In this document: piece after piece, positions 1 to 16,401 of the stretch | Numbering within the stretch: the first letter of the stretch is position 1 | How the letters are laid out: every line of letters starts with the position of its first letter | DNA from: Alienimonas chondri | GTDB taxonomy: Bacteria; Planctomycetota; Planctomycetia; Planctomycetales; Planctomycetaceae | DNA: 35,500 bases | NCBI RefSeq assembly: GCF_013036045.1 | Contig: NZ_WTPX01000038.1 | Span: 1 to 35,500 of the forward strand | Reading direction: 5' to 3' | Program-made: the position numbers and the translations under genes | Notes under the pieces: generated by a model | What the model saw: the letters and a program-made list of their open reading frames with translations, nothing else | The model's database searches: none | What the model was told of the DNA's origin: nothing

Positions 1-885
1 GTGCGGGCCGCGGCCGATCGTGTCGCCGCGGGGGCCGACCCGCGGGCGGCGCTGGGCGAGGTCGACGAGGATCTTCCCGCCTCGCTGAGGGGCATGCTGG
101 AGTTGCCGGTCGGCGACGGGTTGCCGGCGGTGCTGTCCTCGGCCGCCGCGGTCGCCGCGGATCGGGCCGAGGAACGTCGCCGCCTGTCTCGGGCGATTCT
201 CTGGCCGTTGGGCGTCGCGGGGGCGACGTTGCTGGTGGCCGGCGCCTCCCTCGCCCTGCTGGCGCCGGAGTTCCGCTCGTTCGTTGATGATTTCGGATCC
301 GAGACCCCCTGGTTCACCGAGGTCGTGCTGACGCTCGGCGAGTGGTTGGGGGCGTTGTGGTTCCTCGCGCTGCCGCTGGGAATCCTGGCGATCGTCCTGC
401 CGATGGTCCTGTTCGGACGCAGCGTGGGGAGCATCTGGCCGTTCTCCTCCGCCCTCCGGCCGGGGGAGCAGGCGCGGCTGTGCGAACAATTGGCCGTGCT
501 GATCGACGCCCGCGTACCCCTGCCGGAAGCGTTGCGAGCCGTCGGGTGGGCCTGCCCCGACGCCCGGGTGGGTCTGGACGTGGCTCGCACCGCGGACAGC
601 ATCGAACATGGCGCCGACGCCTCCTCAGCGGCCGCCCGTCGGCGGTATCTCCCCGTGCAGTTGCGGGCGGCGCTGCGGCGGGCGAACGACCCGGACTCCT
701 TTGCGGAGGCGCTCCGATTCGCCGCGGCGACCCTGCGGGCGCGGCTCGACGCCCGGCTCGGTCCCGCGGGGATGCTCGCCGCGGCCTTCCAACCGCTGTT
801 GATGGTGGGGCTGGGCGTCGTCGTGTTCCTGCTCGTCTACGCCCTGCTGCTTCCGTTGATCAGTTTGTTGAACTATCTGTCGTGA
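1..885 (+). CDS. GspF-family inner membrane secretion protein (5' end probably outside window)
   Basis: This is a platform protein of a type II secretion or type IV pilus-like system, which sits in the inner membrane and couples the assembly ATPase to pseudopilus growth. Three hydrophobic segments are visible, at about residues 63-87, 117-138 and 264-290. The stretch after residue 157 (LRPGEQARLCEQLAVLIDAR, then PLPEALRAV) matches the start of a second T2SSF domain. The frame is open from base 1, which happens to read GTG. Usual GspF proteins are about 400 residues and carry two T2SSF domains, so the 294 residues here probably lack the N-terminal part of domain one. The next gene, 66 bases downstream, is a second GspF-like protein and is followed by pseudopilins, which supports the assignment. 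The family call is firm; the true start is not visible. Confidence 0.8.
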   Translation: MRAAADRVAAGADPRAALGEVDEDLPASLRGMLELPVGDGLPAVLSSAAAVAADRAEERRRLSRAILWPLGVAGATLLVAGASLALLAPEFRSFVDDFGSETPWFTEVVLTLGEWLGALWFLALPLGILAIVLPMVLFGRSVGSIWPFSSALRPGEQARLCEQLAVLIDARVPLPEALRAVGWACPDARVGLDVARTADSIEHGADASSAAARRRYLPVQLRAALRRANDPDSFAEALRFAAATLRARLDARLGPAGMLAAAFQPLLMVGLGVVVFLLVYALLLPLISLLNYLS

Positions 886-951
886 ACGCCCCCGCAACAG
901 CCGCCGCCCGGTTCGTCCTCCTCGGCCCGACTCCGTATCGCGGGGGCGACG

Positions 952-2106
952 ATGATTGAGGGACTGTTTTTCGTATCGCCCGGCGCGTTGTCGTTGATCG
1001 CGATCGCGACGGCGTGGGCGTTGGTGCGCCGCGGCCGTCGCTTGCGGGCGGCGTCGCTGTTGGGGGAACTCGCCGTCGCCGCCCGTCGCAGGTTGCCGCT
1101 GGACGAAGAGCTGGAGGAACTGAGCGACACCCTCCTGCGGGGCGACCGCGTTCGAGCCAACCGGGCGGCGTCGGCGTTGCGGGAGGGAATCGACCTGCAA
1201 ACGGCGTTGCGTGAGGCTCGATTGATTCCGCCCTCCAGCGAGCCGGCCCTCGCCGCGGGGGAGGCGTCCGGCGCCCTGCCGCGGACTCTCTCCGACGAAG
1301 CCGACCGCCTGCGGGGACAGGCCGGCGGGGCGGCCGCGGCGTTCTGGAACGTCGGCTTTTATTTGCTGGTCACGCTGTGCGCGATCCAGGCGGTGCTGGG
1401 GTTCATCCTCTATTACATCGTCCCGAAATATAAAAAAATCTTCGAGGACTTCGGGATGTCGCCCGACGGCTTTATCGGCGAGTCTCGGCAATACCGCACG
1501 ATGAGCGAGGGATGGTTGGCCCCGCCCTGGTTCGAGGGGTTGCTGGGCGTCGGCTCGCTGTGGGTCAAGTACTTCTATCTCCCGTTCTTTCTGCTGTCGC
1601 TGATCGCGCTGGGGCTGCCGCTGCTCGCTGTAGCGAGCCAGAAGGGTCTGCGACTGCCGGGCGGGGGATGGCGGCGGCGTTGGTTCGGACGGAAACGGGC
1701 GCACGCCTCACGGGTGGCGCGGGCGCTGGCGAACGCGGCGGAGGCCAAGCGACCGTTCCCGGAGACGCTGACCGCCTATGCCGCGGCCGCCGATACGCGC
1801 AGCCCGGCCCTCCGAAAGCTGGCCCGGAACGTCGAACAGGGCGGCGACGTGTGGCCGGCGCTGCATCGAGCCGGGTTGTTCACCGCCGGCGAGGCGCGGC
1901 TTGCGGAGACCGGTACCGCCGCGGGGAACCTGCCCCGCGTGCTGCGGCTGATCGCCGATCGACTCGACGTCGCCGCCGACCGTCGCCGGGGGCGTTGGCT
2001 GGCGCTGCTGCATCCGGCCGCAACGCTGTTCATTGGGATGCTGGTGGCCTGGGTCGCCTTGGCGTTCTTCACGCCGCTGGTCCGCCTGCTCCACGATCTG
2101 GGATAA
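952..2106 (+). CDS. Second GspF-family secretion protein
   Basis: A 384-residue inner membrane protein of the GspF/PilC type. Hydrophobic segments lie near residues 4-22, 130-155, 205-230 and 355-378. After the second comes VPKYKKIFEDFG, the hallmark 'VP...F..FG' of the family's first domain. Two related helical halves, before and after the central membrane pair, both carry the pattern 'GEASGALPRTL' / 'AETGTAAGNLPRVL' typical of T2SSF domains. It follows another GspF-like gene and precedes three pseudopilin genes on the same strand, so it is part of one secretion or pseudopilus operon. No ATPase (GspE) or secretin (GspD) gene is in the window; these may lie upstream. Having two GspF paralogues in a row suggests a heteromeric platform, which is inference. 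Confidence 0.85.
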   Translation: MIEGLFFVSPGALSLIAIATAWALVRRGRRLRAASLLGELAVAARRRLPLDEELEELSDTLLRGDRVRANRAASALREGIDLQTALREARLIPPSSEPALAAGEASGALPRTLSDEADRLRGQAGGAAAAFWNVGFYLLVTLCAIQAVLGFILYYIVPKYKKIFEDFGMSPDGFIGESRQYRTMSEGWLAPPWFEGLLGVGSLWVKYFYLPFFLLSLIALGLPLLAVASQKGLRLPGGGWRRRWFGRKRAHASRVARALANAAEAKRPFPETLTAYAAAADTRSPALRKLARNVEQGGDVWPALHRAGLFTAGEARLAETGTAAGNLPRVLRLIADRLDVAADRRRGRWLALLHPAATLFIGMLVAWVALAFFTPLVRLLHDLG

Positions 2107-2113
2107 CGCCGTG

Positions 2114-2605
2114 ATGCACTTCCCCAGTCGCCCACCGTTCCCCGAATCCCGGCCTGCGCCGCGTCGCGGGGTGACGGCGATGGAGTTGATCGTCGCGGTC
2201 GCGTTGCTGCTGTCGGTGACGGCGATGCTGCTGCCCGCCGCCCGGCGGGTGGACGGGGTTCGCGTGGAAGCCGATCGTCGGCGCCGGGCGGTCGCGGAGC
2301 TGTCGAACCTACTGGAAGACCTCTCCCGCCTGCCGCCCGATCGCCTGTCGGGCGAGACGGAGGGCGGCCCGCTGCCGCCGGACCGCGCCGCGCTGCGGGA
2401 AGCGTTCGCCGCCTCGTTGCCCGGGGCGAGCGTGACGGTGGAAGCCGTCCCGATCGAGGCGCCGGGCGAACGGGATGCGGTGCGCTTGGACGGCTCCCTG
2501 ACGTGGACGACCGACGCCGGCGGCGCAGCTCGGCCGGTGCGACTGAGCGCGTGGTCGTTCGCTCCCTTTTCAACCGCTCCGAACGGCGGGGGGACGGACG
2601 AATGA
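2114..2605 (+). CDS. Pseudopilin with prepilin N-methylation signal
   Basis: A protein of 163 residues with a class III (prepilin peptidase) signal. The basic leader ends in Gly19, followed by VTAMELIVAVALLLSV, giving the required Glu at position +5 (Glu24) and a hydrophobic helix. The rest is a small, charged, proline-rich domain. It resembles a minor type II secretion pseudopilin (GspH/I/J group), but I cannot say which. The start is either GTG 2111 or the adjacent ATG 2114; ATG is chosen. The first bases lie 7 nt after the stop of the preceding GspF gene. Its own stop overlaps the next gene as ATGA, which indicates translational coupling. Confidence 0.75.
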   Translation: MHFPSRPPFPESRPAPRRGVTAMELIVAVALLLSVTAMLLPAARRVDGVRVEADRRRRAVAELSNLLEDLSRLPPDRLSGETEGGPLPPDRAALREAFAASLPGASVTVEAVPIEAPGERDAVRLDGSLTWTTDAGGAARPVRLSAWSFAPFSTAPNGGGTDE

Positions 2606-3132
2606 AGCGGATTCCCACACGAATCGGCGCCCCGACGCCGCCACGGTCGATCCGGCGACGGGCCGGCTACTCGCTGGTCGAGTTGATGGTGGTGATCTCC
2701 GGCACGGTGGCGTTGATCTCCGTGGGGGCGTCGACGATCGTCGCCGTGCGGCGGGTGGCGACGACCGCCCACACCGCGGCGGAGGCGGGAACGGCGCTCT
2801 CCCGATTGCACCGCAGCTTGCGGGAGGACGCCGCCGACGCCGTCGCCGCGACCGCCGACGAGACCGGCTTGACCCTCACCGCCGCCGACGGGGCCGCGAT
2901 TCGCTACGAAGCGGACGCCGCCTCCGTCCGCCGCACCGTGACCGGGCCGCGCGTCGGCCGCGATCGCTACCCGGTCGAGGGCACGGGCTTCACCTGGACG
3001 GCCGAGCCGGGGTCGGACGGCGTGCGGGCGGCGATCGGCTACGACCGCGTCGGCGGGTCGGACGCTCGATCGGACGGAATCGCGGTGGAACTGGCTGCAT
3101 GGTTGTCGAGCGACGAACGGGGGGCGGAATGA
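2602..3132 (+). CDS. Pseudopilin (GspJ/GspI-like) with N-methylation signal
   Basis: A 176-residue protein. After a basic leader (RRRAG) the mature part begins YSLVELMVVISG, so Gly22 would be the cleavage site and Glu27 is the conserved Glu at +5. Processing would be by PilD-type prepilin peptidase. The remaining domain is threonine- and alanine-rich and probably beta-rich. The chosen ATG forms a 4-base ATGA overlap with the previous gene; an in-frame upstream extension would run through the previous gene and is not supported. The next gene overlaps in the same way. Assignment as a pseudopilin is safe. A GspJ-like role is a guess from its place between a shorter pseudopilin and a GspK-like protein. 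Confidence 0.75.
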   Translation: MKRIPTRIGAPTPPRSIRRRAGYSLVELMVVISGTVALISVGASTIVAVRRVATTAHTAAEAGTALSRLHRSLREDAADAVAATADETGLTLTAADGAAIRYEADAASVRRTVTGPRVGRDRYPVEGTGFTWTAEPGSDGVRAAIGYDRVGGSDARSDGIAVELAAWLSSDERGAE

Positions 3133-3620
3133 ACGGCTTCAATAAGAGAACGCCTCGGACGGCCCGGCGGCGGGGGGTGTCGCTGATGGTGGCCGTCGTG
3201 CTGCTGGCGCTCACCACGTCGCTGTTGCTGGCCGCCGCGAGAACGGCGGCGCTGCATCGGCGGTCGCTCGGACCGAACCAGGCCGCGGTGCAGGCCGACC
3301 TATTGGCGGACGCCGCGGCCCGGCTGAACGCCTCCGGCGAAGCGTCCGCCCTGCCGTGGCGACCGGAACTGCCCGGCGGCACGGCCACGGTCTCGCTCGA
3401 GTCCTCGACCGCCGGCGACGGGCTGACGGCCGGCGACGGATCGTCGGCGGCCCCGCCCTCGCTGATCGCGGCGGTCGAACTCGACGGGGCGACGGCCCGA
3501 ACGCGACGGGCGTTTCGCCGCGTTGAACCGTCAAAAACCTCTCCCGCGAACCGCGCACCGCGACTCGCCCCGAAACCCGAACGACCGGCCGACGATGACG
3601 ACGCGTCCCGCCTCGAATAA
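3129..3620 (+). CDS. Pseudopilin-like protein lacking the +5 glutamate (possible GspK/PilX-like)
   Basis: A 163-residue protein with a prepilin-like leader (RTARRRG, then [20 protein letters not shown]). The usual Glu at position +5 is a Val here. Loss of that Glu is characteristic of the tip pseudopilin GspK and of some PilX proteins, but this protein is much shorter than typical GspK (about 300 residues). The tail is rich in Pro, Arg and Asp and looks disordered. The start overlaps the previous stop by ATGA. The C-terminal 26 bases overlap the start of the DUF1559 gene in another frame. GspK-like identity is inferred from operon position and the missing Glu; no GspK core domain is recognisable. 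Confidence 0.65.
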
Positions 3621-4509
3621 ATCCCCCGCCCCGTCCGGGTTCACGCTCATCGAGCTGCTGGTGGTGATCGCCATCATTGCGATCCTGGTCTCCATGCTGT
3701 TGCCGGCGGTGCAGCAGAGCCGGGAGACGGCCCGGCGGGCGGTGTGCTCCAATAACCTCATGCAACTCGCATTGGCGATGCAGAACTATGAGGTCTCGGA
3801 GGGCCGCTTCCCCCCCGGAACGATGGCCGAGAGCGGACCGGTCCGCACGTTCGTCAGCGCAGCGGATTATCTGGCGCTGGAACCGGTCCCGTATCATATG
3901 AACTGGATCACGCAGATCCTCCCGCAATTAGACGAGCGGCCGCTCTATACGCATCTCGACTTCAGCCAAAGCGTTTACGCGCCGGCGAACGACGCGGTGC
4001 GCACGACGGAGCCCGCGGGAATTTTCTGTCCGTCCTCGTCCAGCGGCGGGGGCTACGCCGGCTGCACCGGCGGGAAGGACGTTCCGATCGACGCCGACAA
4101 CGGCGGCGTATTGTTTTTGAACAGCGAGATCACGTACGCCGACATTTCGGACGGCGCCCATCACACGCTGATGATCGGCGAAAGCGGCGCGATGAGCGGG
4201 GCGGCGCTGAGTTGGGCGAGCGGCACCGCGGCCAGTCTGGCCCATTCCGGTCTGTCGCCGAACGATCCCGATGCCCTCGCTATCTTCCCCTTTGCCGGCG
4301 TGGCCCTCGGCGACGAGCCGATTGAGATTGCGGACGACGAAGACGACGGCTCGCTGATTGTCGGCGGCTTCTTCTCGTCCCACGTCGGCGGCGTGCAGGC
4401 GGCGATGTGCGACGGGGCGGTGCGGTTTTTCCCGGACACGATCGACGACGAGGTCTGGAGCCGGCTGGGCGAGCGGGCGGACGGCGAGTTACTGCCGCCG
4501 GGGTACTAA
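3595..4509 (+). CDS. DUF1559 (SBP_bac_10) protein with prepilin-type N-terminus
   Basis: A 304-residue member of the DUF1559 family, which is greatly expanded in planctomycetes. The N-terminus has the leader ending in Gly15, then [20 protein letters not shown] with Glu20 at +5. The following helix ([20 protein letters not shown]) is the standard DUF1559 continuation. The C-terminus shows the family's closing pattern, [20 protein letters not shown] and then a Trp-containing helix. These proteins are presumed pilin-like surface or secretion-associated proteins; their substrates are unknown. ATG 3595 is chosen because it places the leader at normal length. It lies 26 bases inside the previous gene. 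The gene ends the secretion operon, and a strong hairpin follows at 4590-4623. Confidence 0.9.
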
Positions 4510-4514
4510 AAGCG

Positions 4515-4682
4515 GGGCAAGGCGTGAGGCATAAGGGGAAAGCGCCTGGTAGACAGCTGAAGGTACGGTGACGACGAACCGCGTACAGAAAAGGCCCGGA
4601 CGCTCGAAAGCGACCGGGCCTTTAAATCGGATGGGCAGATGAGGCGATGGCGAACTTACGCCTTACGCCTCTCCCCTTGCCC
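4515..4682. repeat. Imperfect 22-nt inverted repeat flanking the convergent terminator
   Basis: The arms are 4515-4536 and 4661-4682 and match at 19 of 22 positions when one is reverse-complemented. They begin 6 bases after the DUF1559 stop and end 11 bases before the flagellin stop codon. The terminator hairpin lies almost exactly at their centre. This may be a remnant of a small palindromic element or an extended base to the terminator; its function is unknown. Confidence 0.5.
4590..4623. terminator. Bidirectional Rho-independent terminator between DUF1559 and flagellin genes
   Basis: A 10-bp perfect stem (AAAGGCCCGG at 4590-4599 with CCGGGCCTTT at 4614-4623) continues past an A-A mismatch into a 4-bp stem closed by a CGAA loop. 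On the minus strand the stem is followed by a run of four T, and on the plus strand by three T. It lies about 80 bases past the DUF1559 stop and about 70 bases past the flagellin stop, so it can serve both transcripts and fits the minus strand slightly better. Confidence 0.8.
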
Positions 4683-4693
4683 CCGTTTTAGTT

Positions 4694-6805
4694 CTACCCG
4701 AGCAGCGACAGCGCCCGCTGCGGCGACTGGTTCGCGATCGACAGCACCGAGGTGGCGGCCTGACCGAGAATCTGAGCCTTCTGCAGGTTGGCCGACTCGA
4801 CGGCGAAGTCGGTGTCGACGATCTGACTGCGGGCCTCGGAGATGTTCTCCAGCGCCACGCCCAACGTGTTGATGTTGGTGTCGATGACGTTCTTCTGAAC
4901 GGCGCCGATCCGGCCACGGAGGCTGGAGACTTCGTTCAGGGCGGTGTCGAGAATCCCGACGAGGTCGGCGCCGCTGGCGGAGCCGTTCTTGACGTCGTTC
5001 AAGCTCTTGCCGCCGCCGCTGGTCAGTTCGAACAACTTGCCGGCGGTGCCGCCCAGACGGGCGGTATTCACGGCGTCGATGCCGATGCCGACCTGCCCGG
5101 TGGTGGAGACGTCCTGGCCGATCTGGAAGGTCGCCCCGCCGCCGGTCACGTCGAGGGAGACGGTTTCGTCCTCGGTGTTGCTGGCCGAATCGAAGGTGAT
5201 CGAGGCGGACAGGCTGGAGGTGGTGATCGACGCCTCCAGGCCGCGGCCGATCGCCTTCTGACCGTTGATGGTGGCGACGACGTCGGCGCCGGTGTCGCGA
5301 CGAGCTTCCGTCGAGAAGTCGTCGATGCCGGTGGTCCCGAAGGTGCCGTCCAGCACGTTGACGGAGACGGATTCGTCCGAGCCGTAGCCGACGCTTTCGA
5401 GGGCGAGCGAGGTGCCGTTGGTCTCGTTCAGGGTGGACTGAGCCAATCCGTCGGCGAGGAGCGTCTCGTCGCCGTCGATCTCGATGTTGAGTGCTGCAGC
5501 GACGCTGGTGCCGTCGGAGAGCGTCAAACCGCTGGCGTCCAGCAGATCCTTGACGTCCTTGAGCGTGCTGGTGACGACGTCGTTGGCGTCGGTGGCGAGT
5601 TGGATGCTGATGTCGTCGCCGCTGACGGAGATGGCCAGCGCCTGGCTGGTGCCGGTGGCGCCGAAGGCGACGGAGACGCCGCCGCGGTTGTTCGGGCCAC
5701 GGACGTCGTCGATGCGGATGGCGCCCTTGTCCAGATCGGTCGCGGCGGTCGCAACGCCGATAGTGGTGGTAGTGGCGTCGGCGGCTGCGGCGACGTCGAA
5801 CAGTTTGTCGCCGTTCTCATCCGTGAGGGCGGTAAAGGCCGTCGCGATGTCGGCGATCGTGGTGGTCACGGCGCCGGTGGCGTAGGCCATTGTCATCGAC
5901 GCGGTGTAGCTGCCGTCGCCATTGTCGATCAGCGAGGTCGAGGCGGCCGAATCGGCGCCCGGATCGATCAGTTCGAAGGCGAGTCCGCCGCCGTCGACCG
6001 CCTTTCGGCCGGCTTCGGTCAGGGCGATCTCAAGGTCTTCGCCATTGACCGTGATCACCTGATTACCGGAGTCCGACGTGCCCTCCAGCACCCGAGCGGA
6101 GACGCCGGTCGCGTCCGTGACCGCATTGATGGCGGTGGCGGCGTCTTCGATGCTGGCCGAATCGCCCAGCTGGATCACCTCGTTCCCCTTCGAGCCGCCG
6201 ACTTCCAGCGTGGTCGCGGTGGTGAAGTCGCCGCCCTGATAGACGAGCGCGGCCTGTTCGGCGGCGCTGTCGATCGTGGCGTCCAGATCGAGCTTCGAGG
6301 CGCTGCCGAGCAACGCCTGATCGATGGAGAAGCTGCTGAGCTTGGCGTTGTCCGCGGAGCTGATCGAGGTGGTGAACGCCTTGGAGCCGTCCAGCAGCTT
6401 GTCGCCGGCGAAGCTCGTGTTGGAGCTGATCCGGTTGATGGCGGTCAGGGCGTTGTCGATCTGCAGCTGGTTCGCGTCGCGTTCTTCCTGCGACAGGGCG
6501 CCGTCGTTCAGGCCTTCCTGAACCAGACCCCGGACCTGCGTGAGCAGTCCGCCGATCTCGCCGAGGGCGCCGTCCGCCGTCGTGAGAACGTTGTTGGCCC
6601 GGTTCGAGTTGGAGATCGACTTTTCGATCGTGGAGATCTGCGACCGCAGCGTCTCGCCGGCGATCAGGCCGGAGGGATCGTCCTTACCGTTGTTGATCTT
6701 CACGCCGGTCGACAACCGCGTCATCGCGGAGGACAGCATCTTGTCGCTCTTCATCATCGAGCGTTGGCCACGCAGCGATGCGACGTTGGTATTGATGCGG
6801 GTCAT
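4694..6805 (-). CDS. fliC: Flagellin, large form with long variable region
   Basis: The filament subunit of the flagellum, exported by the flagellar type III apparatus. Residues 1-144 form the conserved D0/D1 N-terminal domain (TRINTNVASLRGQR; LSTGVKINNGKDDPSGL). Residues about 584-703 form the conserved C-terminal domain (NTLGVALENISEARSQIVDTD, LQKAQILGQA, SIANQSPQRALSLL). The roughly 440 residues between are variable, rich in Ala, Thr, Asp and Gly, and contain a Flagellin_IN-like segment near INAVTDATGVSARV. At 703 residues it is much longer than Bacillus flagellin and longer than the common 500-residue type, so the surface domains are large. The protein contains no cysteine, as usual for flagellins. 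A potential Shine-Dalgarno (AAGGA) lies 11 bases before the ATG. csrA lies 396 bases upstream on the same strand. A terminator follows at 4590-4623. Confidence 0.95.
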   Translation of the reverse strand: MTRINTNVASLRGQRSMMKSDKMLSSAMTRLSTGVKINNGKDDPSGLIAGETLRSQISTIEKSISNSNRANNVLTTADGALGEIGGLLTQVRGLVQEGLNDGALSQEERDANQLQIDNALTAINRISSNTSFAGDKLLDGSKAFTTSISSADNAKLSSFSIDQALLGSASKLDLDATIDSAAEQAALVYQGGDFTTATTLEVGGSKGNEVIQLGDSASIEDAATAINAVTDATGVSARVLEGTSDSGNQVITVNGEDLEIALTEAGRKAVDGGGLAFELIDPGADSAASTSLIDNGDGSYTASMTMAYATGAVTTTIADIATAFTALTDENGDKLFDVAAAADATTTTIGVATAATDLDKGAIRIDDVRGPNNRGGVSVAFGATGTSQALAISVSGDDISIQLATDANDVVTSTLKDVKDLLDASGLTLSDGTSVAAALNIEIDGDETLLADGLAQSTLNETNGTSLALESVGYGSDESVSVNVLDGTFGTTGIDDFSTEARRDTGADVVATINGQKAIGRGLEASITTSSLSASITFDSASNTEDETVSLDVTGGGATFQIGQDVSTTGQVGIGIDAVNTARLGGTAGKLFELTSGGGKSLNDVKNGSASGADLVGILDTALNEVSSLRGRIGAVQKNVIDTNINTLGVALENISEARSQIVDTDFAVESANLQKAQILGQAATSVLSIANQSPQRALSLLG

Positions 6806-7201
6806 GGGTCCCGGATTCCTTCAACAAGTTGTGGGAGGGGTGCCGCCGGGGAGCGGCGACCGGCGTTTTGCCGCCGTGCGTAGGGCACGGTGAGGTGGAG
6901 GACGACCGGCGGTGAGGGGGAACTCCCCGGCGGAGCGGGGACCCGCGACACGCGGCGTCATGCCGGCTCAACGGGCGGGGCGGAGTCGTCCTGACGGGCC
7001 CGTCAAAACCATCGGTCGGGATCAACGTCCGCATCGGACGCAATACGCCGATTCCGGTTTGAACCCGCCCGAAGACGCACAGCCTGCCGACGGTGCGGGT
7101 CCTGCGGCCGCGACTCCGGATCGCAACACGGCAGAACCCGCACAATGACCCCGTTCCGTCCGAGCTGATCCCGGCCGCCCGCAACAATGGCCTCAGCGGG
7201 G
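6806..7201. other. Intergenic region between csrA and flagellin
   Basis: A 396-base spacer without a credible gene. It must hold the flagellin leader and, unless csrA and flagellin are co-transcribed, the flagellin promoter. A small hairpin is present at 6874-6890 (CCGTGC, loop GTAGG, GCACGG). I looked for sigma-28 and sigma-54 type flagellar promoters on the minus strand and found no convincing match. Confidence 0.5.
6809..6821 (-). promoter_or_regulatory. Flagellin ribosome binding site with two GGA triplets (candidate CsrA target)
   Basis: On the minus strand the flagellin leader ends AAGGAATCCGGGACCC before ATG. One GGA lies in the Shine-Dalgarno sequence (6817-6819, positions -14 to -12) and another at 6809-6811 (-6 to -4). 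CsrA recognises GGA, commonly in pairs with one over the Shine-Dalgarno. The motif is seen; CsrA binding is inferred from the neighbouring csrA gene. Confidence 0.4.
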
Positions 7202-7387
7202 TCAAGCGGCCCGACGCTCCGGCTCGCCGGCGGCCAGCGCCAGGAACACCTCTTCACGGTGCACCGTGACGTTCCGCGGGGCGTCGATCCCGACCCGCAC
7301 CTTGTCGCCTTTAACATCCACGATCGTGATCCGGATATCGTCTCCGATAACGATCGTCTGTTCCTTCTGGCGGCTTAAAACCAACAT
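7202..7387 (-). CDS. csrA: Carbon storage regulator CsrA (RsmA)
   Basis: A 61-residue homodimeric RNA-binding protein that controls translation and stability of target mRNAs by binding GGA motifs. The sequence starts [18 protein letters not shown], and the second half has GIDAP followed by VTVHREEV. The residues known to contact RNA are present: Leu4, Arg6 and Arg44. Length is normal for the family. A strong Shine-Dalgarno, AAGGAG, ends 5 bases before ATG; it contains a GGA, so autoregulation is possible. The gene is upstream of flagellin on the same strand and divergent from cstA. In Bacillus CsrA represses flagellin translation, and in E. coli it represses cstA. FliW, the usual CsrA antagonist in flagellar systems, is not in the window. 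Confidence 0.95.
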
Positions 7388-7711
7388 GGCGTCTCCTTAC
7401 GGTGTGGTGTGCGGGGGGAAGGCTCGGCCGGCTCCTCCGGGCGAGTGAGACGGTCGCGTCGACCTGTCTGCCGAGACTACTTCGGCAACCCTGGCAACCT
7501 GGGGGGACGCCATCTGCCCGAATATCTTGCCGCGACGCCCCAGCCGGTCGATCCTGCCGAGTCGACCGACAGCGCCGTCTCGTCCGATGGTGCGGGCGAA
7601 ACGCGGAGCGGCCGGAGCCCCGGACGACGCCGCGGCGGTTGCGTCGGAGAGCCGGGCCGCTCACTCTGCCGCGGTTCGCCCAGTCATTTTTGATCAGTCA
7701 GGTCGCCGCCG
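7388..7711. other. Divergent intergenic region between csrA and cstA
   Basis: About 320 bases that must carry both promoters. I see no strong -35/-10 pair. There is a short hairpin at 7469-7487 (TGCCGA, 7-base loop, TCGGCA) and a small direct repeat GGCAACC just after it. The last 60 bases before the cstA start contain no GGA triplet; the nearest is at 7646-7648. Confidence 0.4.
7393..7398 (-). promoter_or_regulatory. Strong ribosome binding site of csrA
   Basis: AAGGAG on the minus strand, 5 bases before the ATG. Many starts in this window lack such a site, so this one stands out. It contains a GGA triplet (7394-7396), the core of CsrA recognition, which would permit autorepression. Confidence 0.6.
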
Positions 7712-9553
7712 ATGTCCGTGCTCTTGGTCTTGCTGGGGTCGGCGGCGGGACTCAGTCTGGCGTACGTCGTGCTCGGCCGCTGGCTGAGCGACGTGTTCGC
7801 CGTCGACGCCGACGCCGTCGTTCCCAGCATTGAGAAAGAGGACGGCCGCGACTTCGTCCCGACCCGTCGCTGGGTCGTGTTCGCCCATCACTTCACCAGC
7901 ATCGCCGGCACCGGCCCGATCGTGGGGCCGGCGGTCGCGGTGTTCTGGGGTTGGCTGCCGGCGTTGGTCTGGGTGCTGCTGGGCAGCGTGCTGGTCGGCG
8001 CCGTGCACGACTTCGGCTCGCTGGTGGTGAGCCTGAAGAACGGCGGGGCGACGGTGGGCGAGGCGGCCGGCCGCCTGATCTCCCCGCGGGCGCGCTGGCT
8101 GTTCCTCACGGTCCTCTGGCTGGCGCTGACGGTGGTGCTGGGGGTGTTCGGATTGGTGATCGCCAGCGTGTTCGGCACCTACCCGGAAAGCGTGCTTCCC
8201 GTCTGGGCGGCGATGCCGCTGGCGATTCTGCTGGGCCGCGTGATCAAAAGCGGGGGGAACCTCGCCGTGCCGGTCGCTCTCGGTCTGGCGACGCTGCTGG
8301 GATGCGTGTGGCTGGGGGCGCAATACGTGCCGGTGGACCTCGCGGTCATTCTGCCGAAGCTCGGTCTGGACGCGTTCAGCCCGGTGGTGGTCTGGACGGT
8401 TCTGCTGCTGGCCTATTGCTACGCGGCGAGCGTGATGCCGGTCGGCCTGTTGCTCCAACCGCGCGATCTGCTCAACAGCGGTTTGCTGTTCCTGACGATG
8501 GCCGCGCTGGTGATCGGCGCCGGCGTGGCCGGCGCCACGGGCGCCGCGGATCTCGCCAGCGCCCCGATGATCGCCGACACCGGCGCCCTGCCCGGCGGCG
8601 CCCCGGCGATTCTGCCGTTCCTGTTCGTCACGGTGGCCTGCGGTGCGTGCAGCGGGTTTCACTGCCTGGTCGCCAGCGGGACCAGCAGCAAGCAGGTGAA
8701 GTCTGAATTGGACGCCCGCCCTGTCGGCTATGGAGCGATGCTCGCCGAGGCGTTCCTGGCGGTGTTGGTCATCCTCGCCTGCACGGCCGGACTGGGAATG
8801 GGCCGAACCCTGGACATTCCCGAGGCCGCCGCGGGCGGGGTGGCCGCCACGAGTCCGACGACGCTGGTCGGCGGCGAGGCGTGGTCCTCGCTCTACCGTT
8901 CCGACGGCAACTGGAGCGACTTCTCCCTGAAGAGCAAGATCGCGGCGTTCGTCGACGGCGGGGCGAACTTCCTTCAGCAAGTCGGTATCCCGCTCTGGTT
9001 CGGCGTGGGGCTGATCGCGACGACGGTCGCCGGATTCGCCGCGACGACTTTGGACAGCGCCACCCGCTTGCAGCGGTATGTCGTGCAGGAACTCGCCGGG
9101 GGACTGGCGGAGAAGGCGCCGATCTTCGCCCCGCTCACGGGTCGACACCCCGCGACGTTCATCGCGGTGCTGGCCGGCGGGGCGATCGCCATGCTGCCGG
9201 CGGCGGGCAAGGGCTACGGCACCGGCGGCCTGATCCTCTGGCCGTTGTTCGGAGCGACGAACCAACTGCTGGCCGGGTTGGCGTTCCTCGTGATCGCCTT
9301 CTACCTCCACCGTCGCCGCAAGCCGGTGCTGTGGCTGGTGCCCGCGGCCCTGCTGATGGTCGCCGTCCCGGCCTGGGCGATGGCGGTGCAGGTGTTCGAT
9401 CCGGAGATCGGCTGGATCGCTCAGAAGAACTGGCTGCTGTCCGCGATGGGCGGCGCCGTGCTGCTGCTGGAGGGCTGGGTGCTGATCGAAGCGGTGAGGA
9501 TGTGGCCGCGGGTCTCCAGAAACGACGGCGTCCCGAACGCGACGCCGGCCTGA
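7712..9553 (+). CDS. cstA: Carbon starvation protein CstA-type transporter
   Basis: A 613-residue polytopic membrane protein of the CstA family, whose members import pyruvate and/or peptides during carbon limitation. Family patterns are clear: HHFTSIAGTGPIVGPAVAV near the N-terminus, GAVHDFGSLVVSLKNGG with a following GEAAGR, SVMPVGLLLQPRD in the middle, and CSGFHCLVASGTSSKQVKSE followed by DARPVGYGAMLAEAF. It is shorter than E. coli CstA (about 700 residues). There are many evenly spaced hydrophobic helices and the C-terminal part has further membrane segments. No two-component CstA regulator (BtsSR type) is adjacent; csrA lies divergently upstream. The ribosome binding site is weak. A 22-base tandem repeat overlaps the stop codon. 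The exact substrate cannot be read from sequence. Confidence 0.93.
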   Translation: MSVLLVLLGSAAGLSLAYVVLGRWLSDVFAVDADAVVPSIEKEDGRDFVPTRRWVVFAHHFTSIAGTGPIVGPAVAVFWGWLPALVWVLLGSVLVGAVHDFGSLVVSLKNGGATVGEAAGRLISPRARWLFLTVLWLALTVVLGVFGLVIASVFGTYPESVLPVWAAMPLAILLGRVIKSGGNLAVPVALGLATLLGCVWLGAQYVPVDLAVILPKLGLDAFSPVVVWTVLLLAYCYAASVMPVGLLLQPRDLLNSGLLFLTMAALVIGAGVAGATGAADLASAPMIADTGALPGGAPAILPFLFVTVACGACSGFHCLVASGTSSKQVKSELDARPVGYGAMLAEAFLAVLVILACTAGLGMGRTLDIPEAAAGGVAATSPTTLVGGEAWSSLYRSDGNWSDFSLKSKIAAFVDGGANFLQQVGIPLWFGVGLIATTVAGFAATTLDSATRLQRYVVQELAGGLAEKAPIFAPLTGRHPATFIAVLAGGAIAMLPAAGKGYGTGGLILWPLFGATNQLLAGLAFLVIAFYLHRRRKPVLWLVPAALLMVAVPAWAMAVQVFDPEIGWIAQKNWLLSAMGGAVLLLEGWVLIEAVRMWPRVSRNDGVPNATPA

Positions 9554-9597
9554 CCCGACCCTGTTCCCGGCCTGACCCGACCCTGATTCCGGCCTGA
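9547..9597 (+). repeat. 22-bp tandem repeat spanning the cstA stop codon
   Basis: The unit begins GGCCTGACCCGACCCTG and is 22 bases long. Copy one is 9547-9568, copy two 9569-9590, and a 7-base partial third copy ends at 9597. The cstA stop (9551-9553) lies in copy one, and each copy supplies a further TGA. It looks like a slippage-type duplication at a gene end. Confidence 0.8.
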
Positions 9598-9912
9598 AAA
9601 GACAGCGGGACGACTTCGGGGGCGAAGGAACCAAAGCGCGAATTTGCACGCGGTTGAAAAAATTCCTTCAAGTCGCCCTTGGGGCTTCGCGGCCGAAGCA
9701 CTACACCCCCGCCCGCACGGCAACGTCACTCTCCCACACGGTTCGACGCCCGCTGACGCCGCCCCCCGCGGCGGACAAAGCGGCCACGAACCGGACGTTC
9801 GCTTCGCTCCCTCGGCACAACCCATTCTCGTTCCTCCCCGGACTTCGTCGGTCCCCCTCCCTTCGTTTGGGATGAGGGTCGTCGGCGGCCGGACCACGCA
9901 AGGACTGCTCCC
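9554..9912. other. Intergenic region after cstA
   Basis: After the tandem repeat there is about 300 bases without a supportable gene. Short open frames near 9650-9940 have no recognisable domain and atypical composition, and I treat them as chance. The end of the region provides AAGGA about 10 bases before the start of the following gene. Confidence 0.4.
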
Positions 9913-10278
9913 ATGGCCCGGTTCACGACTTTGGCTCGTTCCCTGAAGCTGACCACCCTGAAGCGGGTCGTCCCGGCCGTCGCCGGCGCCGGCATCATCG
10001 CTTTGTCCACCGGCTGCTGCTGCGGCGCCAGCCAGGGCGGATACGGAAGCTACTACGGCGCCCCCGGCTTCGGCGGCGGCGGCTGCGAGAGCGGCCAATG
10101 CGGCGGCGGTTACGGCGCCGGCTACGGCGCCCCGATCTATCCGCAGGGCGCCATGGCCGCCCCGTCCGGCCCGACCGCCGCGGCGCCCGTTTACTATCAG
10201 ACCGCCGCCGCCCCGGTGTACTACGCCGCTCCCACCCAGACGGCCGCCGCCCCGGCCAACTGCGTGCCGACCTACTGA
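9913..10278 (+). CDS. Small Gly/Tyr/Ala-rich putative lipoprotein
   Basis: A 121-residue protein with a basic N-terminus and a hydrophobic stretch ending ALSTGCCCGAS, an approximate lipobox with three consecutive cysteines. The mature part is low-complexity: glycine-tyrosine repeats (GGYGSYYGAPGF, CGGGYGAGYGAP), then Ala/Pro/Tyr repeats (AAPVYYQTAAAPVYYAAP), ending in a short segment with another Cys. Composition suggests a secreted, surface-anchored or cell-wall-associated structural protein. No catalytic motif is visible. It stands alone, with its own AAGGA ribosome binding site and a perfect hairpin 25 bases after the stop. Function unknown. Confidence 0.7.
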   Translation: MARFTTLARSLKLTTLKRVVPAVAGAGIIALSTGCCCGASQGGYGSYYGAPGFGGGGCESGQCGGGYGAGYGAPIYPQGAMAAPSGPTAAAPVYYQTAAAPVYYAAPTQTAAAPANCVPTY

Positions 10279-10303
10279 GTCGGCCCCTGTGCCGGGGGAT
10301 TCC

Positions 10304-10336
10304 CGTTCGCCGCTCTCATGATGAGAGCGGCGAACG
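10304..10336. terminator. Perfect 15-bp stem-loop after the Gly-rich lipoprotein gene
   Basis: The arms 10304-10318 (starting CGTTCGCCGCTC) and 10322-10336 pair perfectly around a TGA loop. No T-run follows on either strand, so it may be a terminator of the non-U-tract type, an mRNA 3'-end stabiliser or a dispersed palindrome. It lies between the lipoprotein gene and def. Confidence 0.6.
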
Positions 10337-10400
10337 AAGTCGCCCGCGACGCTCGGCGGGCGTAGGATGCGAACCCGTTTCGCCCCCATTCCCCTGCCTG

Positions 10401-11042
10401 ATGTCTTCAACGATCGCCCCCCAGGACTTCCTCGAGCAGGGCGTCTCCGTCTCCTCCGGAGCGGATGCATTGAAGATCGTGCCGCACCCGCATCCCGCGT
10501 TGCGGCGGAAGGCGAAACCGGTCACCGAGATCAATGCCGCGCTTCGGCGTCACGTCTCGGAGATGTTTGAACTGATGTACGCCCACGAAGGCGTCGGACT
10601 GGCGGCCACGCAGGTGGCTCGTCCGTGGCGTTTGTTCGTCGCCAACCCCACCGGCGAAGCGGATCAAACCGACCAGCAGCAGGTCTTCATCAACCCGGAG
10701 ATCGTCCGTCAGACCGGCAGCGAAACGGCCGAAGAAGGCTGCTTGAGCCTGCCCCAGTTGTTCGGCGACGTCCGTCGCGCGAAGCAGATCACCGTGGAAG
10801 CGTTCGACCTGAACGGGGAGTTGTTCACCCTCGAACTGGACGAACTGCCCGCCCGCGTGGTGCTGCACGAGTTCGACCATTTGGAAGGGGTGATGTTCCC
10901 CGACCGCATGACGCCCGCGGAGAAAACGAAGGCCGACCCCAAACTGGCGGACTTCGAACATGCGTGGCGCAAAGCCCAGAAGTCCGGCGAGATCCCGGAC
11001 GACCGCACGCTGCTCAAAGCGTTCGAGACGTTCAAGCTGTAA
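10401..11042 (+). CDS. def: Peptide deformylase
   Basis: A metalloenzyme that removes the formyl group from the N-terminal methionine of nascent proteins. All three family motifs are present: GVGLAATQ (residues 64-71), EGCLS (112-116, with metal ligand Cys114) and HEFDH (156-160, with ligands His156 and His160 and catalytic Glu157). It has 213 residues, against about 170 in E. coli. The extra residues are an N-terminal extension of about 23 residues before LKIVPHPHPALRRKAKP and a longer C-terminal helix. The ATG is chosen as the only ATG in this frame near the domain. fmt follows 90 bases downstream, the usual pairing, but the two are separated by a large inverted repeat. Confidence 0.95.
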   Translation: MSSTIAPQDFLEQGVSVSSGADALKIVPHPHPALRRKAKPVTEINAALRRHVSEMFELMYAHEGVGLAATQVARPWRLFVANPTGEADQTDQQQVFINPEIVRQTGSETAEEGCLSLPQLFGDVRRAKQITVEAFDLNGELFTLELDELPARVVLHEFDHLEGVMFPDRMTPAEKTKADPKLADFEHAWRKAQKSGEIPDDRTLLKAFETFKL

Positions 11043-11046
11043 GCGC

Positions 11047-11123
11047 GGAACCGCGACCGTCAGGGAGCCGGCTCTCTGCGGATGCGGCGTTCCCGGAGCC
11101 GGCTCCCTGACGGTCGCGGTTCC
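11047..11123. repeat. Perfect 28-bp inverted repeat between def and fmt
   Basis: The arms 11047-11074 and 11096-11123 are exact reverse complements (the left arm begins GGAACCGCGACCGTCAGGGA), with a 21-base spacer. The element starts 4 bases after the def stop codon and ends 9 bases before the fmt ATG, filling nearly the whole gap. It would fold into a very stable hairpin in the def-fmt mRNA. It has the form of a REPIN or small palindromic dispersed element. There is no T-run, so simple termination is unlikely. Confidence 0.9.
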
Positions 11124-11132
11124 ACAGCACTC

Positions 11133-12074
11133 ATGCGCGTTCTCTTCCTCGGCACCGGCACGTTCGGCGAACCCGCGATGCGGGCGATCGCCGCGTCGCC
11201 GCACGATCTCGTCGGCCTCGTCACCCAACCGGATCGCGGGGGGAAGGGGAAGCACACCGCCGCCCCGCCGTTGAAAGCCGCCGCCGAGGAACTCGGCGTC
11301 CCCGTCTTCCAGCCGGCGAAGGTGAACGTCGCCGACAGCCTCGACCGACTGCGGGCCTTCGAGGCCGACGCCTTCATCGTCGCCGCGTACGGGCAGATCC
11401 TCAGCGAGACCCTGCTGAGCATCCCCCGGATCGGCGCGTTCAACCTGCACGCCTCGCTGCTGCCGAAGTTCCGCGGCGCCGCTCCGATCCACGCCGCGAT
11501 TCGGGGGGGAGAAGAGGAGACCGGCGTGACGATCTTCCGCATCGTCCGCCGACTGGACGCCGGCCCGATGCTGGGCACGGAGGCGACGGCGATCGGCCGC
11601 TCCGAAACCGCCGGCGAACTGCACGACCGTCTGGCCGTTCTCGCGGCGCCGCTCACGCTGGAGACGTTGGACGCCCTCGACGCCGGCACCGCGGTGCCGG
11701 TGCGGCAGGATCACGACCTCGCCACCTACGCCCCGCAGATGGAAAAGGCGGAGGGCCGGATCGACTGGACCCGCTCCGCCGCCGCCGTCAGCCGGCACGT
11801 CCGGGGGATGAGCCCGTGGCCGGGGGCGTTTTCGCTCTTCGAGCCCGGCGGATTGCAGACGAAGGGCGGCAAGCCGGCCCGGTGTCTATTCGAATCGGTG
11901 GAGGTCGTTGCGGGCGACGGTGGCGAGCCGGGCGAAGCGACGGAGCGAGCCGGCGACATGGTCGTCGCCTGCGGCTCCGGGGCGGTGCGGGTTCGTTCGA
12001 TCAAGCCCGCAGGCAAACGAGCGATGACGGGGGCGGAGTTCCTCCGCGGCCGGGGCGCCGGACGATTCGGTTAG
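11133..12074 (+). CDS. fmt: Methionyl-tRNA formyltransferase
   Basis: Formylates the methionine on initiator tRNA with 10-formyl-tetrahydrofolate, the step that peptide deformylase later reverses. The 313 residues match the family length. The catalytic triad is in place: Asn104 and His106 in NLHASLLPKFRGAAPI and Asp142 in RRLDAGPM. The N-terminal Rossmann part starts RVLFLGTGTFGEPAM. The C-terminal OB-like tRNA-binding domain begins near residue 205 (EKAEGRIDW) and ends with KPAGKRAMTGAEFLRG. The start is only 9 bases past the right arm of the 28-bp inverted repeat, and no Shine-Dalgarno is visible there, so translation may depend on coupling with def or on opening of the hairpin. Confidence 0.95.
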   Translation: MRVLFLGTGTFGEPAMRAIAASPHDLVGLVTQPDRGGKGKHTAAPPLKAAAEELGVPVFQPAKVNVADSLDRLRAFEADAFIVAAYGQILSETLLSIPRIGAFNLHASLLPKFRGAAPIHAAIRGGEEETGVTIFRIVRRLDAGPMLGTEATAIGRSETAGELHDRLAVLAAPLTLETLDALDAGTAVPVRQDHDLATYAPQMEKAEGRIDWTRSAAAVSRHVRGMSPWPGAFSLFEPGGLQTKGGKPARCLFESVEVVAGDGGEPGEATERAGDMVVACGSGAVRVRSIKPAGKRAMTGAEFLRGRGAGRFG

Positions 12075-12130
12075 TCGCTGCGTTCCGCGCGGCGTTCAAC
12101 GGCGCTGCGACCAGAACGCTCGTGTCCTGC

Positions 12131-12159
12131 TTGGCCGTCCCGCGGCCCCCCACTACACT
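12131..12159 (+). promoter_or_regulatory. Candidate sigma-70-type promoter of aceE
   Basis: TTGGCC (12131-12136), a 17-base spacer and TACACT (12154-12159) resemble -35 and -10 boxes, each matching the consensus at four of six positions. It lies about 90 bases before the aceE start in the 176-base gap after fmt. No other feature is visible in that gap. Confidence 0.35.
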
Positions 12160-12250
12160 GCGCGACCGGCCGCCCCGCCCTCGGCTCCCTCCGAGCACGG
12201 GGTCTGTCGGTTCCGGTTTGCGCTCCCGTCCCTGTTGCGAAACGACCCCG

Positions 12251-14989: not shown

Positions 14990-15014
14990 GTCTCTTCTCA
15001 AATCATCCATACCG

Positions 15015-15040
15015 CGGAGGCCCCGCCGGGCCTCCGTTTT
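15015..15040 (+). terminator. Intrinsic terminator or attenuator between aceE and aceF
   Basis: An 8-bp perfect GC-rich stem (CGGAGGCC at 15015-15022, GGCCTCCG at 15029-15036) with a 6-base loop, followed by TTTT on the plus strand. It lies 26 bases after the aceE stop and 30 bases before aceF. It could lower aceF expression relative to aceE or mark a transcript end; no separate aceF promoter was recognised. Confidence 0.65.
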
Positions 15041-15069
15041 GAAGACCTCAAAACGCTCCTCCGTCTCCT

Positions 15070-16401
15070 ATGGCGACCGCATTCAATCTGCCCGAAGTCT
15101 CCGAAGGGGTGGAGGCTGCGGATATCTCCGAGATCCTCGTCGCCGTCGGCGATAAGGTGGAGCAGGGTCAGATGGTGATGGAGGTGGAGACCGAAAAGGC
15201 CGTCGCCCCCGTCGAGATTCCCTTCTCCGGCACGATCACGGAGATCCTCGTCGGCGAGGGCGACACCGTGAAAATCGGCGCGCCGTTATTGAACGTCGAG
15301 CAGGGCGAATCCGCCGAGGCTCCGGCCGCGGAGAAAACCTCTGAGCCCGCTGAGGCGAAGCAGTCCTCCCCCGCTCCGGCCGCGTCGGCCCCCGCGAAGC
15401 AACCGGCGACCGTCTCGACGGCTCCCGCCGGCGATCGTCCGCCGGCCCCGGCGGCGCCCAGCGTGCGGCGGCTCGCCCGCGAAATGGGCGTCGACCTGTA
15501 CGCCGTCTCCGGCAGCGCCCGCGGCGGGCGGATTCTCGCTGAGGACGTGAAGGCGTTCGCCGAGGGCGGCGGAGCTTCGTCCGGCGGCGGAGCGAATCGG
15601 TTGATTCCCTCGGACCGCGGCGGGGTGGACTCCGCTCTGATCCCCGCCGGCGCCGGCGCGATGGCCGCTCCGGACCTCCCGGACTTCAGCCAGTACGGCG
15701 TGGTCCGACGGGAGCGGATGAACAAGATCGCCAAGACTTCCGCGGCGCATCTCTCCTACGCCTGGCAGACGATCCCGCACGTCACCCAGCATGACGAAGC
15801 GGACATCACCGCCCTCGAAGCCGCCCGCAAGGCGTACGGCGCCGGAGCCGGCAAGAACGGCCCGAAGGTCACGATGACGGCGATCCTCGCCAAGGCCGTC
15901 GCCGGGGTCTTGAAGGAGCACCCGATCTTTAATAGCTCGCTGGACCTGGGCAGCGGGGAGATCGTTTATAAAGAGTACGTCAATATCGGCATCGCCGTGG
16001 ACACCGAAGCCGGCCTCGTCGTGCCGGTCATTCGGGACGTGGATCAGAAATCCATCCTGGAGATCGCCGCGGACCTCACCGAGATCGCCGGCCGCGCCCG
16101 CGATCGCAAGCTGGGGCTGGAGGAGATGCGCGGCGGCACGTTCACCATCAGCAACCTCGGCGGCATCGGCGGCGGGCACTTCACCCCGATCGTGAACTTC
16201 CCCGAAGTGGCCATCCTCGGCGTCAGCCGCGGGAAGAAGGTCGTCGAGTTGGACGACGCCGGCAAACCGGTTCAAAAACTGATGGTGCCCCTCTCCCTGA
16301 GCTACGACCACCGCGTCGTCAACGGCGCCGACGGGGCGCGGTTCATTAAGAGCTTGAACGTCGCTCTCAGCGACTTCATGGCGCTGCTGGTCAGCGCGTA
16401 G
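15070..16401 (+). CDS. aceF: Dihydrolipoamide acetyltransferase (E2) of pyruvate dehydrogenase
   Basis: Core enzyme that carries the acetyl group on lipoyl-lysine and transfers it to CoA. There are 443 residues in the standard order: one lipoyl domain (1-77, with Lys43 in [11 protein letters not shown]), an Ala/Pro-rich swinging linker (80-128), a peripheral-subunit binding domain (about 129-164, [19 protein letters not shown]), a second flexible linker, and the catalytic domain (about 208-443). The catalytic His414 lies in [15 protein letters not shown]. The position four residues after it is Asn418, where many E2 proteins have Asp; I believe Asn occurs in some natural E2p enzymes. There is one lipoyl domain, where E. 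coli E2p has three. It is downstream of aceE with a hairpin between. Confidence 0.96.

What the first reader, a model, noticed from the sequence alone, without database searches (positions are those of the whole stretch)
4694..9553. csrA placed between flagellin and cstA, two classic CsrA targets
CsrA has Leu4, Arg6 and Arg44 intact. In Bacillus, CsrA represses flagellin translation, and in E. coli it represses cstA. Here csrA is adjacent to both. The flagellin leader has two GGA triplets, one in its Shine-Dalgarno and one 8 bases away. The csrA ribosome binding site also contains GGA. The cstA leader has no GGA in its last 60 bases, which argues against simple repression there. A compact motility and carbon-starvation switch is plausible.
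Basis: partly seen in the sequence, partly recalled or inferred. Interest (0 to 1): 0.62.

Follow-up and report, generated by a model that had tools for sequence, protein, structure and literature searches.

The report
csrA wedged between flagellin and cstA
A small RNA-binding regulator gene sits between the gene for the swimming filament and a nutrient-transporter gene; this order recurs in many members of a planctomycete family in which the regulator's usual protein partner was not found, which hints at a modified way of controlling flagella.

Summary
In detail: flagellin (4694-6805 -), csrA (7202-7387 -) and cstA (7712-9553 +) are genuine, with CsrA's RNA-contact residues intact. The genome matches Alienimonas chondri LzC2 by exact size. 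The order is not unique: among Planctomycetaceae with the orthologous cstA, csrA lies divergently beside it in 19 of 29 testable genomes; flagellin follows csrA in 10 of the 19, and three of the 19 genomes have no flagellin match. FliW, the usual CsrA antagonist, was found in none of 61 family genomes, though csrA still abuts flagellin in 22; seven FliW-bearing relatives have fliW-csrA-flagellin. The FliW-contact residue N55 is kept in 7/7 of those but in 14/33 CsrAs here (E in the window). The CsrA core motif A(N)GGA ranks first of 256 similar motifs in the family's type-1 flagellin leaders (second after thinning close pairs), and 131st in cstA leaders. Best reading: a FliW-less CsrA-flagellin module with cstA as a conserved, possibly co-regulated neighbour, not a direct CsrA target. 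The flagellin 'two GGA' detail is shared only with A. californiensis. Many csrA upstreams share an undescribed element. No binding or expression data were available.

The parts
4694..6805 (-). flagellin (703 aa, type-1: starts MTRINTNV)
   Evidence: PF00669 88.2 bits, PF00700 72.7 bits
7202..7387 (-). csrA (61 aa); L4, R6, V42-H43-R44 intact; L51 and E55 in place of I51 and N55
   Evidence: PF02599 85.9 bits; residues; best solved-structure matches 1y00, 5dmb, 2bti
7712..9553 (+). cstA (613 aa), the only CstA match in the genome
   Evidence: PF02554 394.6 bits; own-genome search
6817..6821 (-). AAGGA in the flagellin Shine-Dalgarno region (-16 to -12)
   Evidence: conserved in A. californiensis
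6809..6812 (-). second flagellin GGA (GGGA, -7 to -4)
6902..7024 (-). block in the csrA-flagellin gap conserved between the two Alienimonas species; in the other 57 genomes searched only short weak matches (37-40 bits, 5 genomes)
   Evidence: 57 used 6870-7040
7009..7016 (-). ACCGATGG, 92 nt (start to start) after 7087-7108, as in A. californiensis; resembles a sigma28 -10 box (weak lead)
7087..7108 (-). weak match to the 22-nt upstream element before flagellin (score 4.5 here, 10.3 in A. californiensis; cut-off used was 8)
7423..7445 (-). csrA leader hairpin with GGA in its loop (AGGAG); 4 + 4 pairs with one mismatch here, 9 pairs in A. californiensis
   Evidence: not more stable than shuffles of the leader (z 0.41); too short a continuous stem to count
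7575..7596 (-). possible degenerate copy of the csrA upstream element (at -209; -208 in A. californiensis); score not above shuffles
7388..7711 (.). divergent csrA-cstA intergenic region, 324 nt (323 in A. californiensis)

Best explanation
This csrA is the flagellin-dedicated CsrA of a modified Hag-FliW-CsrA homeostasis module. In Planctomycetaceae FliW is gone (none found at Pfam-HMM sensitivity). CsrA still sits upstream of type-1 flagellin (shown) and most likely represses flagellin translation by binding A(N)GGA sites in the flagellin leader; in relatives that leader starts at flagellin's own sigma28-type promoter (motif enrichment and promoter-like sites shown by sequence; repression inferred). 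csrA is transcribed from the region it shares with divergent cstA. The pair is kept because the two promoters share regulation, so that the carbon or pyruvate state that sets cstA can also set the CsrA dose and hence filament production (inferred). CsrA does not act directly on cstA mRNA (inferred from absent sites). What relieves CsrA without FliW is unknown: other CsrA paralogs, an unknown sRNA, or control of its synthesis.
For: Gene order: csrA divergent to cstA in 19 of 29 testable family genomes of one cstA clade; flagellin next to csrA in 10 of the 19; apart from extra reading frames of these three genes, the next most shared neighbour family is in 5 of 19 of the fetched stretches. Named loci: 13 of 80, 6 of them the same contigs as above by length. 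FliW: 0 of 61 in the family, 23 of 38 outside it; fliW-csrA-flagellin order in 7 of the 10 FliW-bearing genomes with a Flagellin_N match. N55: 7/7 against 14/33, Fisher p 0.009. A(N)GGA in type-1 flagellin leaders: 102 against 67.3, z 4.4, rank 1 of 256; reverse strand 43 against 48.7. Sigma28-like site before 11 of 32 type-1 flagellins (expected about 0.2), 0 of 37 csrA, 0 of 59 cstA. cstA leaders: 86 against 86.6.
Against: The window's three leaders fail my coding of the published multi-site rule, and so do most relatives (type-1 flagellin passes in 3 of 32, csrA 4 of 33, csrA-linked cstA 1 of 19, controls 8 of 148). GGA in the last 20 nt is rarer in type-1 flagellin leaders than in control genes (14 of 32 against 103 of 148). 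No sigma28 match before the two Alienimonas flagellins. Type-2 flagellins, with no csrA neighbour, are also somewhat enriched (41 against 28.0, z 2.6, rank 11), as are type-1 flagellins not linked to csrA (24 against 16.0). Dropping one of each close pair lowers the flagellin signal to z 3.6, rank 2. No direct evidence of co-regulation of csrA and cstA. Ten of 29 genomes with the same cstA lack the neighbour. Three of ten FliW-bearing flagellates (G063, G068, G072) have no csrA at the flagellin locus fetched. Rows related by descent are not independent.
Confidence: 0.5

Rival explanations
1. Inherited gene order without function: an ancestral cstA-csrA-flagellin arrangement is simply decaying, and cstA and csrA are regulated separately.
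For: All 19 cases lie in one cstA clade, consistent with one origin and several losses (quick tree, long-branch warnings). The best non-palindromic element in the intergenic regions is oriented with csrA, not cstA. Ten of 29 lack the pair.
Against: Other neighbours are less conserved (5 of 19 or fewer; def-fmt in 6 of 16 counting the window). The pair persists in three genomes without a Flagellin_N match. A 20-nt palindrome in the intergenic regions also beat its shuffled sets (52.1 against 32.6 to 37.8) and was not followed up.
Confidence: 0.35
2. E. coli-type switch: CsrA directly represses both flagellin and cstA translation.
For: Known for E. coli cstA and B. subtilis hag (PMC7652899, passages); the two are neighbours of csrA here. 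GGA at -80 to -50 is commoner in the 19 csrA-linked cstA leaders than in controls (13 of 19 against 60 of 148, p 0.027, one of many tests).
Against: No A(N)GGA in the 324-nt cstA upstream region of the window; no enrichment in 58 family cstA leaders (86 against 86.6) and little in the 19 csrA-linked ones (29 against 24.7, z 0.8).
Confidence: 0.08
3. csrA is a member of the flagellar regulon through an upstream site shared with flagellin promoters, and cstA is a bystander. (Not exclusive of the best explanation's flagellin part.)
For: De novo element CCGTCACAnnCGGnACAGCCGG upstream of csrA with GACGAT 84 nt on; a like element before flagellins of G020, G027 and G039 (3 of 44, expected 0.2); composite in 10 of 44 flagellin upstreams against 1 of 52 csrA-free cstA upstreams and about 3% of random pieces.
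Against: De novo searches on flagellin upstreams, and on csrA upstreams away from cstA, did not recover it; away from the core set other spacings also score; ten ORFs downstream of other genomic hits were not flagellar; very weak in the window.
Confidence: 0.25

Closest known systems
Hag-FliW-CsrA flagellin homeostasis module (Bacillus subtilis; also Campylobacter, Clostridioides)
   Same: csrA gene next to flagellin (stated for B. subtilis in PMC6529632, passage), here upstream and co-oriented; CsrA RNA-contact residues intact; A(N)GGA-rich type-1 flagellin leaders in the family.
   Different: No FliW found in any of 61 family genomes; FliW-contact N55 replaced (E here); short 61-aa CsrA; cstA occupies the side where fliW lies in seven relatives, on the opposite strand; csrA-flagellin gap of 396 nt, with a sigma28-like site within 450 nt of the flagellin start in 8 of 23 csrA-linked rows.
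E. coli Csr system acting on cstA
   Same: The same two gene families; CsrA represses cstA there (PMC7652899, passages).
   Different: Here adjacency, not leader sites, links them; no CsrB match in the genome.
Planctomycetia with enriched csrA and predicted sigma54-driven csrA (PMC12316311, passages)
   Same: Planctomycetia with many csrA genes.
   Different: No sigma54 site excess before the csrA genes examined here (2 of 37, expected 4.0).

Membership tests
CsrA family | CsrA domain with conserved RNA-contact residues L4, R6, R44 | tested here: met
   PF02599 85.9 bits over cut-off 27; residues
Hag-FliW-CsrA module | csrA adjacent to and co-oriented with flagellin | tested here: met
Hag-FliW-CsrA module | FliW encoded in the genome | tested here: not met
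   0 of 1 own genome, 0 of 61 in the family; controls B. subtilis and T. maritima positive; the own genome is a draft of 355 contigs
Hag-FliW-CsrA module | FliW-contact residues of CsrA (V/I51, N55; PMC7829508, abstract and passages) | tested here: not met
   window has L51, E55; N55 in 14 of 33 family rows against 7 of 7 with FliW
Hag-FliW-CsrA module | CsrA-binding sites in the flagellin leader | tested here: inconclusive
   family-level enrichment; the window's leader has one A(N)GGA within 150 nt of the ATG and fails the multi-site rule as coded
E. coli-type CsrA repression of cstA | Multiple GGA sites in the cstA leader, one at the Shine-Dalgarno sequence | tested here: not met
CsrB/CsrC-type sRNA control | CsrB-type sRNA | tested here: not met
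   RF00018: 0 of 1, E. coli control positive; other and unknown sRNA families not tested

The most novel reading that the evidence does not exclude
In Planctomycetaceae the flagellin checkpoint has been rewired. FliW was lost, CsrA no longer needs it, and the dose of a flagellin-dedicated CsrA is set from a bidirectional regulatory region shared with the carbon-starvation/pyruvate transporter cstA, through a new activator site with fixed helical spacing, so that nutrient state replaces filament assembly as the input that controls flagellin translation.
Probability: 0.15. Interest if true: 0.7.

Novelty: new variant of a known kind. Interest (0 to 1): 0.48.

Why it matters
FliW has been likened to the antitoxin of the CsrA-flagellin module (PMC6529632, abstract and passages), and planctomycetes were listed among groups that may use FliW (PMC4682653, passages). 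A family that keeps csrA-flagellin without a detectable FliW makes the question 'what antagonises CsrA when there is neither FliW nor CsrB' testable in a cultured motile strain such as A. californiensis. The conserved csrA-cstA pair gives a specific candidate input.

Tried and rejected
Direct CsrA control of cstA by leader sites: rejected for lack of sites. Sigma54 and sigma70 consensus promoters: no excess before csrA or flagellin. Known RNA families: nothing near a gathering score in window 4500-10500 or in six relatives' loci. RNA structure for the csrA upstream element: no consensus structure predicted. RNA structure in the Alienimonas csrA-flagellin gap: not more stable than shuffles. Other genomic copies of the element: most pattern matches with up to 2 mismatches lie elsewhere in the genomes, and the reversed control pattern also matches often; 20 hits were fetched, one downstream ORF of 10 of them was scanned and none was flagellar. 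PDH-cstA linkage: aceF and lpd found beside cstA in 1 of 20 loci, A. californiensis.

Flaws in my own steps: the type-2 flagellin row was spoiled by a slicing error, and the row labelled as excluding near duplicates only dropped the first two rows; one search replaces both. The CGAT listing used a faulty pattern and is not used. In one search the aceE query was out of frame, so aceE linkage was not tested there. The multi-site rule is my own coding from passages of PMC4066749. PWM-based counts on csrA loci that supplied the PWM are circular; only the other groups are informative. Expected values use mononucleotide shuffles; one search adds dinucleotide shuffles, reverse strand, other spacings and random pieces. 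Start codons in relatives were chosen automatically. Flagellin types were assigned by an N-terminal pattern. The cstA tree is a quick search with long-branch warnings. Of 47 family genomes with Flagellin_N, flagellin loci of 44 were fetched, usually one flagellin each; of 97 genomes with CstA, 76 cstA loci.
Full report
What is there. The three genes are as described: flagellin 4694-6805 (-), csrA 7202-7387 (-), cstA 7712-9553 (+), each with a strong Pfam match. csrA and flagellin are co-oriented with a 396-nt gap; csrA and cstA diverge from a 324-nt region. The window is a whole contig of a 5,295,625-bp genome. That size is exactly the one tabulated for Alienimonas chondri LzC2 in PMC10509075 (passages); G001 (5,475,215 bp) equals A. 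californiensis CA12, and G012 (5,228,745 bp) equals Stratiformator vulcanicus Pan189. A. californiensis is listed as motile, with a flagellated pole (PMC7716856, passages). The genome has five CsrA matches, one CstA, two Flagellin_N matches, of which the second is weaker and was not identified, no FliW and no CsrB match.

Gene order elsewhere. CsrA, Flagellin_N and CstA were sought in 99 genomes including this one: present in 99, 67 and 97. cstA loci of 76 genomes were fetched; 75 cstA proteins of at least 400 aa were compared (58 of the family, coded f1; 17 outside). csrA starts within 1.5 kb of cstA, divergently, in 19 (G000, G001, G007, G009, G011, G012, G016, G018, G019, G020, G029, G033, G035, G039, G040, G041, G047, G048, G052). 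All are f1, and all lie in one cstA clade of 37 rows, of which 32 are f1 (quick tree with long-branch warnings). Three of the 32 (G015, G017, G034) are cut by contig ends, so 19 of 29 are testable positives. Three further f1 genomes (G043, G049, G060) have csrA within 5 kb of a cstA of another clade in another arrangement. None of the 17 outside f1 has csrA in the fetched cstA stretch. In 10 of the 19 flagellin is next to csrA; in G007, G009 and G052 no Flagellin_N is found in the genome. Setting aside extra reading frames of these three genes, no other neighbour family is shared by more than 5 of the 19 fetched stretches, which mostly reach only some 3 to 6 kb to each side; def-fmt follow cstA in the window and in 5 of 15 other such loci checked over about 12 kb. 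In a named set, csrA is beside cstA in 13 of 80 loci: titled Planctomyces, Gimesia, Fuerstiella, Planctomycetaceae, Planctomycetota or just bacterium; none of those titled Pirellulaceae or Poribacteria.

FliW. FliW is found in 0 of 61 f1 genomes and in 23 of 38 others, although 47 of the 61 have Flagellin_N and in 22 csrA lies beside flagellin. Outside f1, ten FliW-bearing genomes have Flagellin_N; in seven (G064, G073, G081, G084, G087, G090, G093) fliW, csrA and flagellin lie in that order on one strand; in G063, G068 and G072 the flagellin locus fetched has no csrA. PMC7829508 (abstract and passages) maps FliW contacts to V51 and N55 of C. jejuni CsrA. N55 is kept in all seven FliW-bearing linked rows, in 14 of 33 f1 rows (Fisher p 0.009, relatedness not corrected) and in 5 of the 19 cstA-linked rows; the window has L51 and E55. 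PMC4682653 (passages) had suggested that planctomycetes may use FliW; this family looks like an exception.

CsrA sites. The window's flagellin upstream has A(N)GGA at -354, -298, -187 and -16, 4 against 1.3 expected in 396 nt (p 0.024); the GGA at -6 is of the secondary type. The csrA leader has AAGGA at the ribosome site and AGGA in a hairpin loop at about -50, kept in A. californiensis; the fold is not more stable than shuffles. The cstA upstream region has no A(N)GGA. None of the three passes the multi-site rule as I coded it. At family level, 31 type-1 flagellin leaders (-250 to -21; one of 32 was too short) hold 102 A(N)GGA against 67.3 in dinucleotide shuffles (z 4.4, rank 1 of 256 motifs of that form); the reverse strand gives 43 against 48.7. 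With G001, G024, G029 and G060 dropped: 87 against 59.0, rank 2. Type-2 flagellins: 41 against 28.0, rank 11. csrA leaders: 58 against 51.5, rank 67. cstA leaders: 86 against 86.6 for all 58 (rank 131), 29 against 24.7 for the 19 linked ones (rank 59). Loop-GGA hairpins occur in 12 of 33 csrA leaders against 16% of shuffles (the window's own stem has a mismatch and is not counted). So flagellin, and perhaps csrA itself, look like CsrA targets; cstA on balance does not.

Promoters. A sigma28-like site (TAA[AG], 15-17 nt, GNCGAT) precedes 11 of 32 type-1 flagellins (about 0.2 expected), starting 109 to 348 nt before the start codon, 0 of 14 type-2 flagellins, 0 of 37 csrA and 0 of 59 cstA genes. 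So in relatives flagellin probably has its own promoter and a long leader. No such site was found in either Alienimonas.

An unexpected element. De novo motif search on 17 csrA-cstA intergenic regions (G001 and G029 left out) gave CGTCACAATCGGnACA, log-likelihood 70.6 against 47.2 to 54.1 for four shuffled sets; a 20-nt palindrome, CGGnnnnnnCGnnnnnnCCG, also exceeded its sets (52.1 against 32.6 to 37.8) and was not followed up. The first is oriented with csrA, mostly 200 to 380 nt before its start. Its long form is followed by GACGAT[GT] at exactly 84 nt in G009, G019, G029, G048, G052 and L129 (L129 closely resembles G029, and G009 resembles G052), and at 83 nt in G040. The stretch between is poorly conserved and no RNA structure is predicted, which fits DNA-level phasing better than RNA. 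Similar elements precede flagellins in G020, G027 and G039, and a looser composite is found before 10 of 44 f1 flagellins against 1 of 52 csrA-free cstA upstreams and 32 of 1102 random strand-pieces. Against this: independent searches on flagellin upstreams and on csrA upstreams away from cstA did not recover it, control spacings also score in part, downstream ORFs of ten other genomic hits were not flagellar, and the copy in the window is degenerate and not above shuffles. It is a lead.

Interpretation. The most economical account is a FliW-less CsrA-flagellin module whose csrA shares a divergent regulatory region with cstA. CstA is a pyruvate transporter in E. coli (PMC7730263, abstract and passages), and in Alienimonas cstA is followed by def, fmt and genes of the pyruvate dehydrogenase complex, a linkage not seen for aceF and lpd in 19 other loci. 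That is compatible with a carbon-state input but is genus-level only.

Print. The searches 'CsrA + Planctomycetes', 'CsrA + cstA + flagell', 'Planctomycet + flagellin + FliW', 'csrA + fliW + synteny' and 'csrA + cstA + Planctomycet' showed, among the papers listed, no title or abstract start that describes this arrangement (one search listed 20 of 48); only open-licence PMC papers were searchable. csrA-hag adjacency itself is known (PMC6529632, passage).

Noticed in passing
window 9913-19662: Downstream of cstA: a small Gly/Cys-rich ORF without Pfam match, peptide deformylase, formyl transferase, PDH E1, E2 and a lipoyl-bearing pyridine nucleotide-disulphide oxidoreductase. E2 and E3 follow cstA also in A. 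californiensis but not in 19 other loci.
   Followed up: partly
family f2 genomes (G061, G066, G070, G074, G076, G079, G082, G085, G088, G091, G094, G097): All 12 f2 genomes searched have FliW but no Flagellin_N match, as does G078 of f5: a FliW without flagellin, the reverse of the window's family.
   Followed up: no
G000 C124, C24, C344, C312 (L001, L003, L004, L005): Four further CsrA matches; one canonical, three with a diverged region around residue 44. Family genomes carry 5 to 17 CsrA matches.
   Followed up: partly
upstream of csrA in G009, G019, G029, G048, G052, L129: Undescribed 22-nt element CCGTCACAnnCGGnACAGCCGG followed by GACGAT exactly 84 nt on; function unknown.
   Followed up: partly
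csrA-cstA intergenic regions and linked cstA leaders: A 20-nt palindrome CGGnnnnnnCGnnnnnnCCG beats shuffled sets, and A(N)CCT is the top motif in the 19 linked cstA leaders (53 sites, z 6.3). Neither is explained.
   Followed up: no
type-2 flagellin upstreams, L112, L117, L120: CAAGTTT-N11-TTCGATAA, close to the E. coli sigma28 consensus (recalled), about 440-530 nt before the start codon.
   Followed up: no
window 1-4509: Two T2SS F genes at the contig start and a DUF1559 protein with an N-methylation motif beside flagellin.
   Followed up: no
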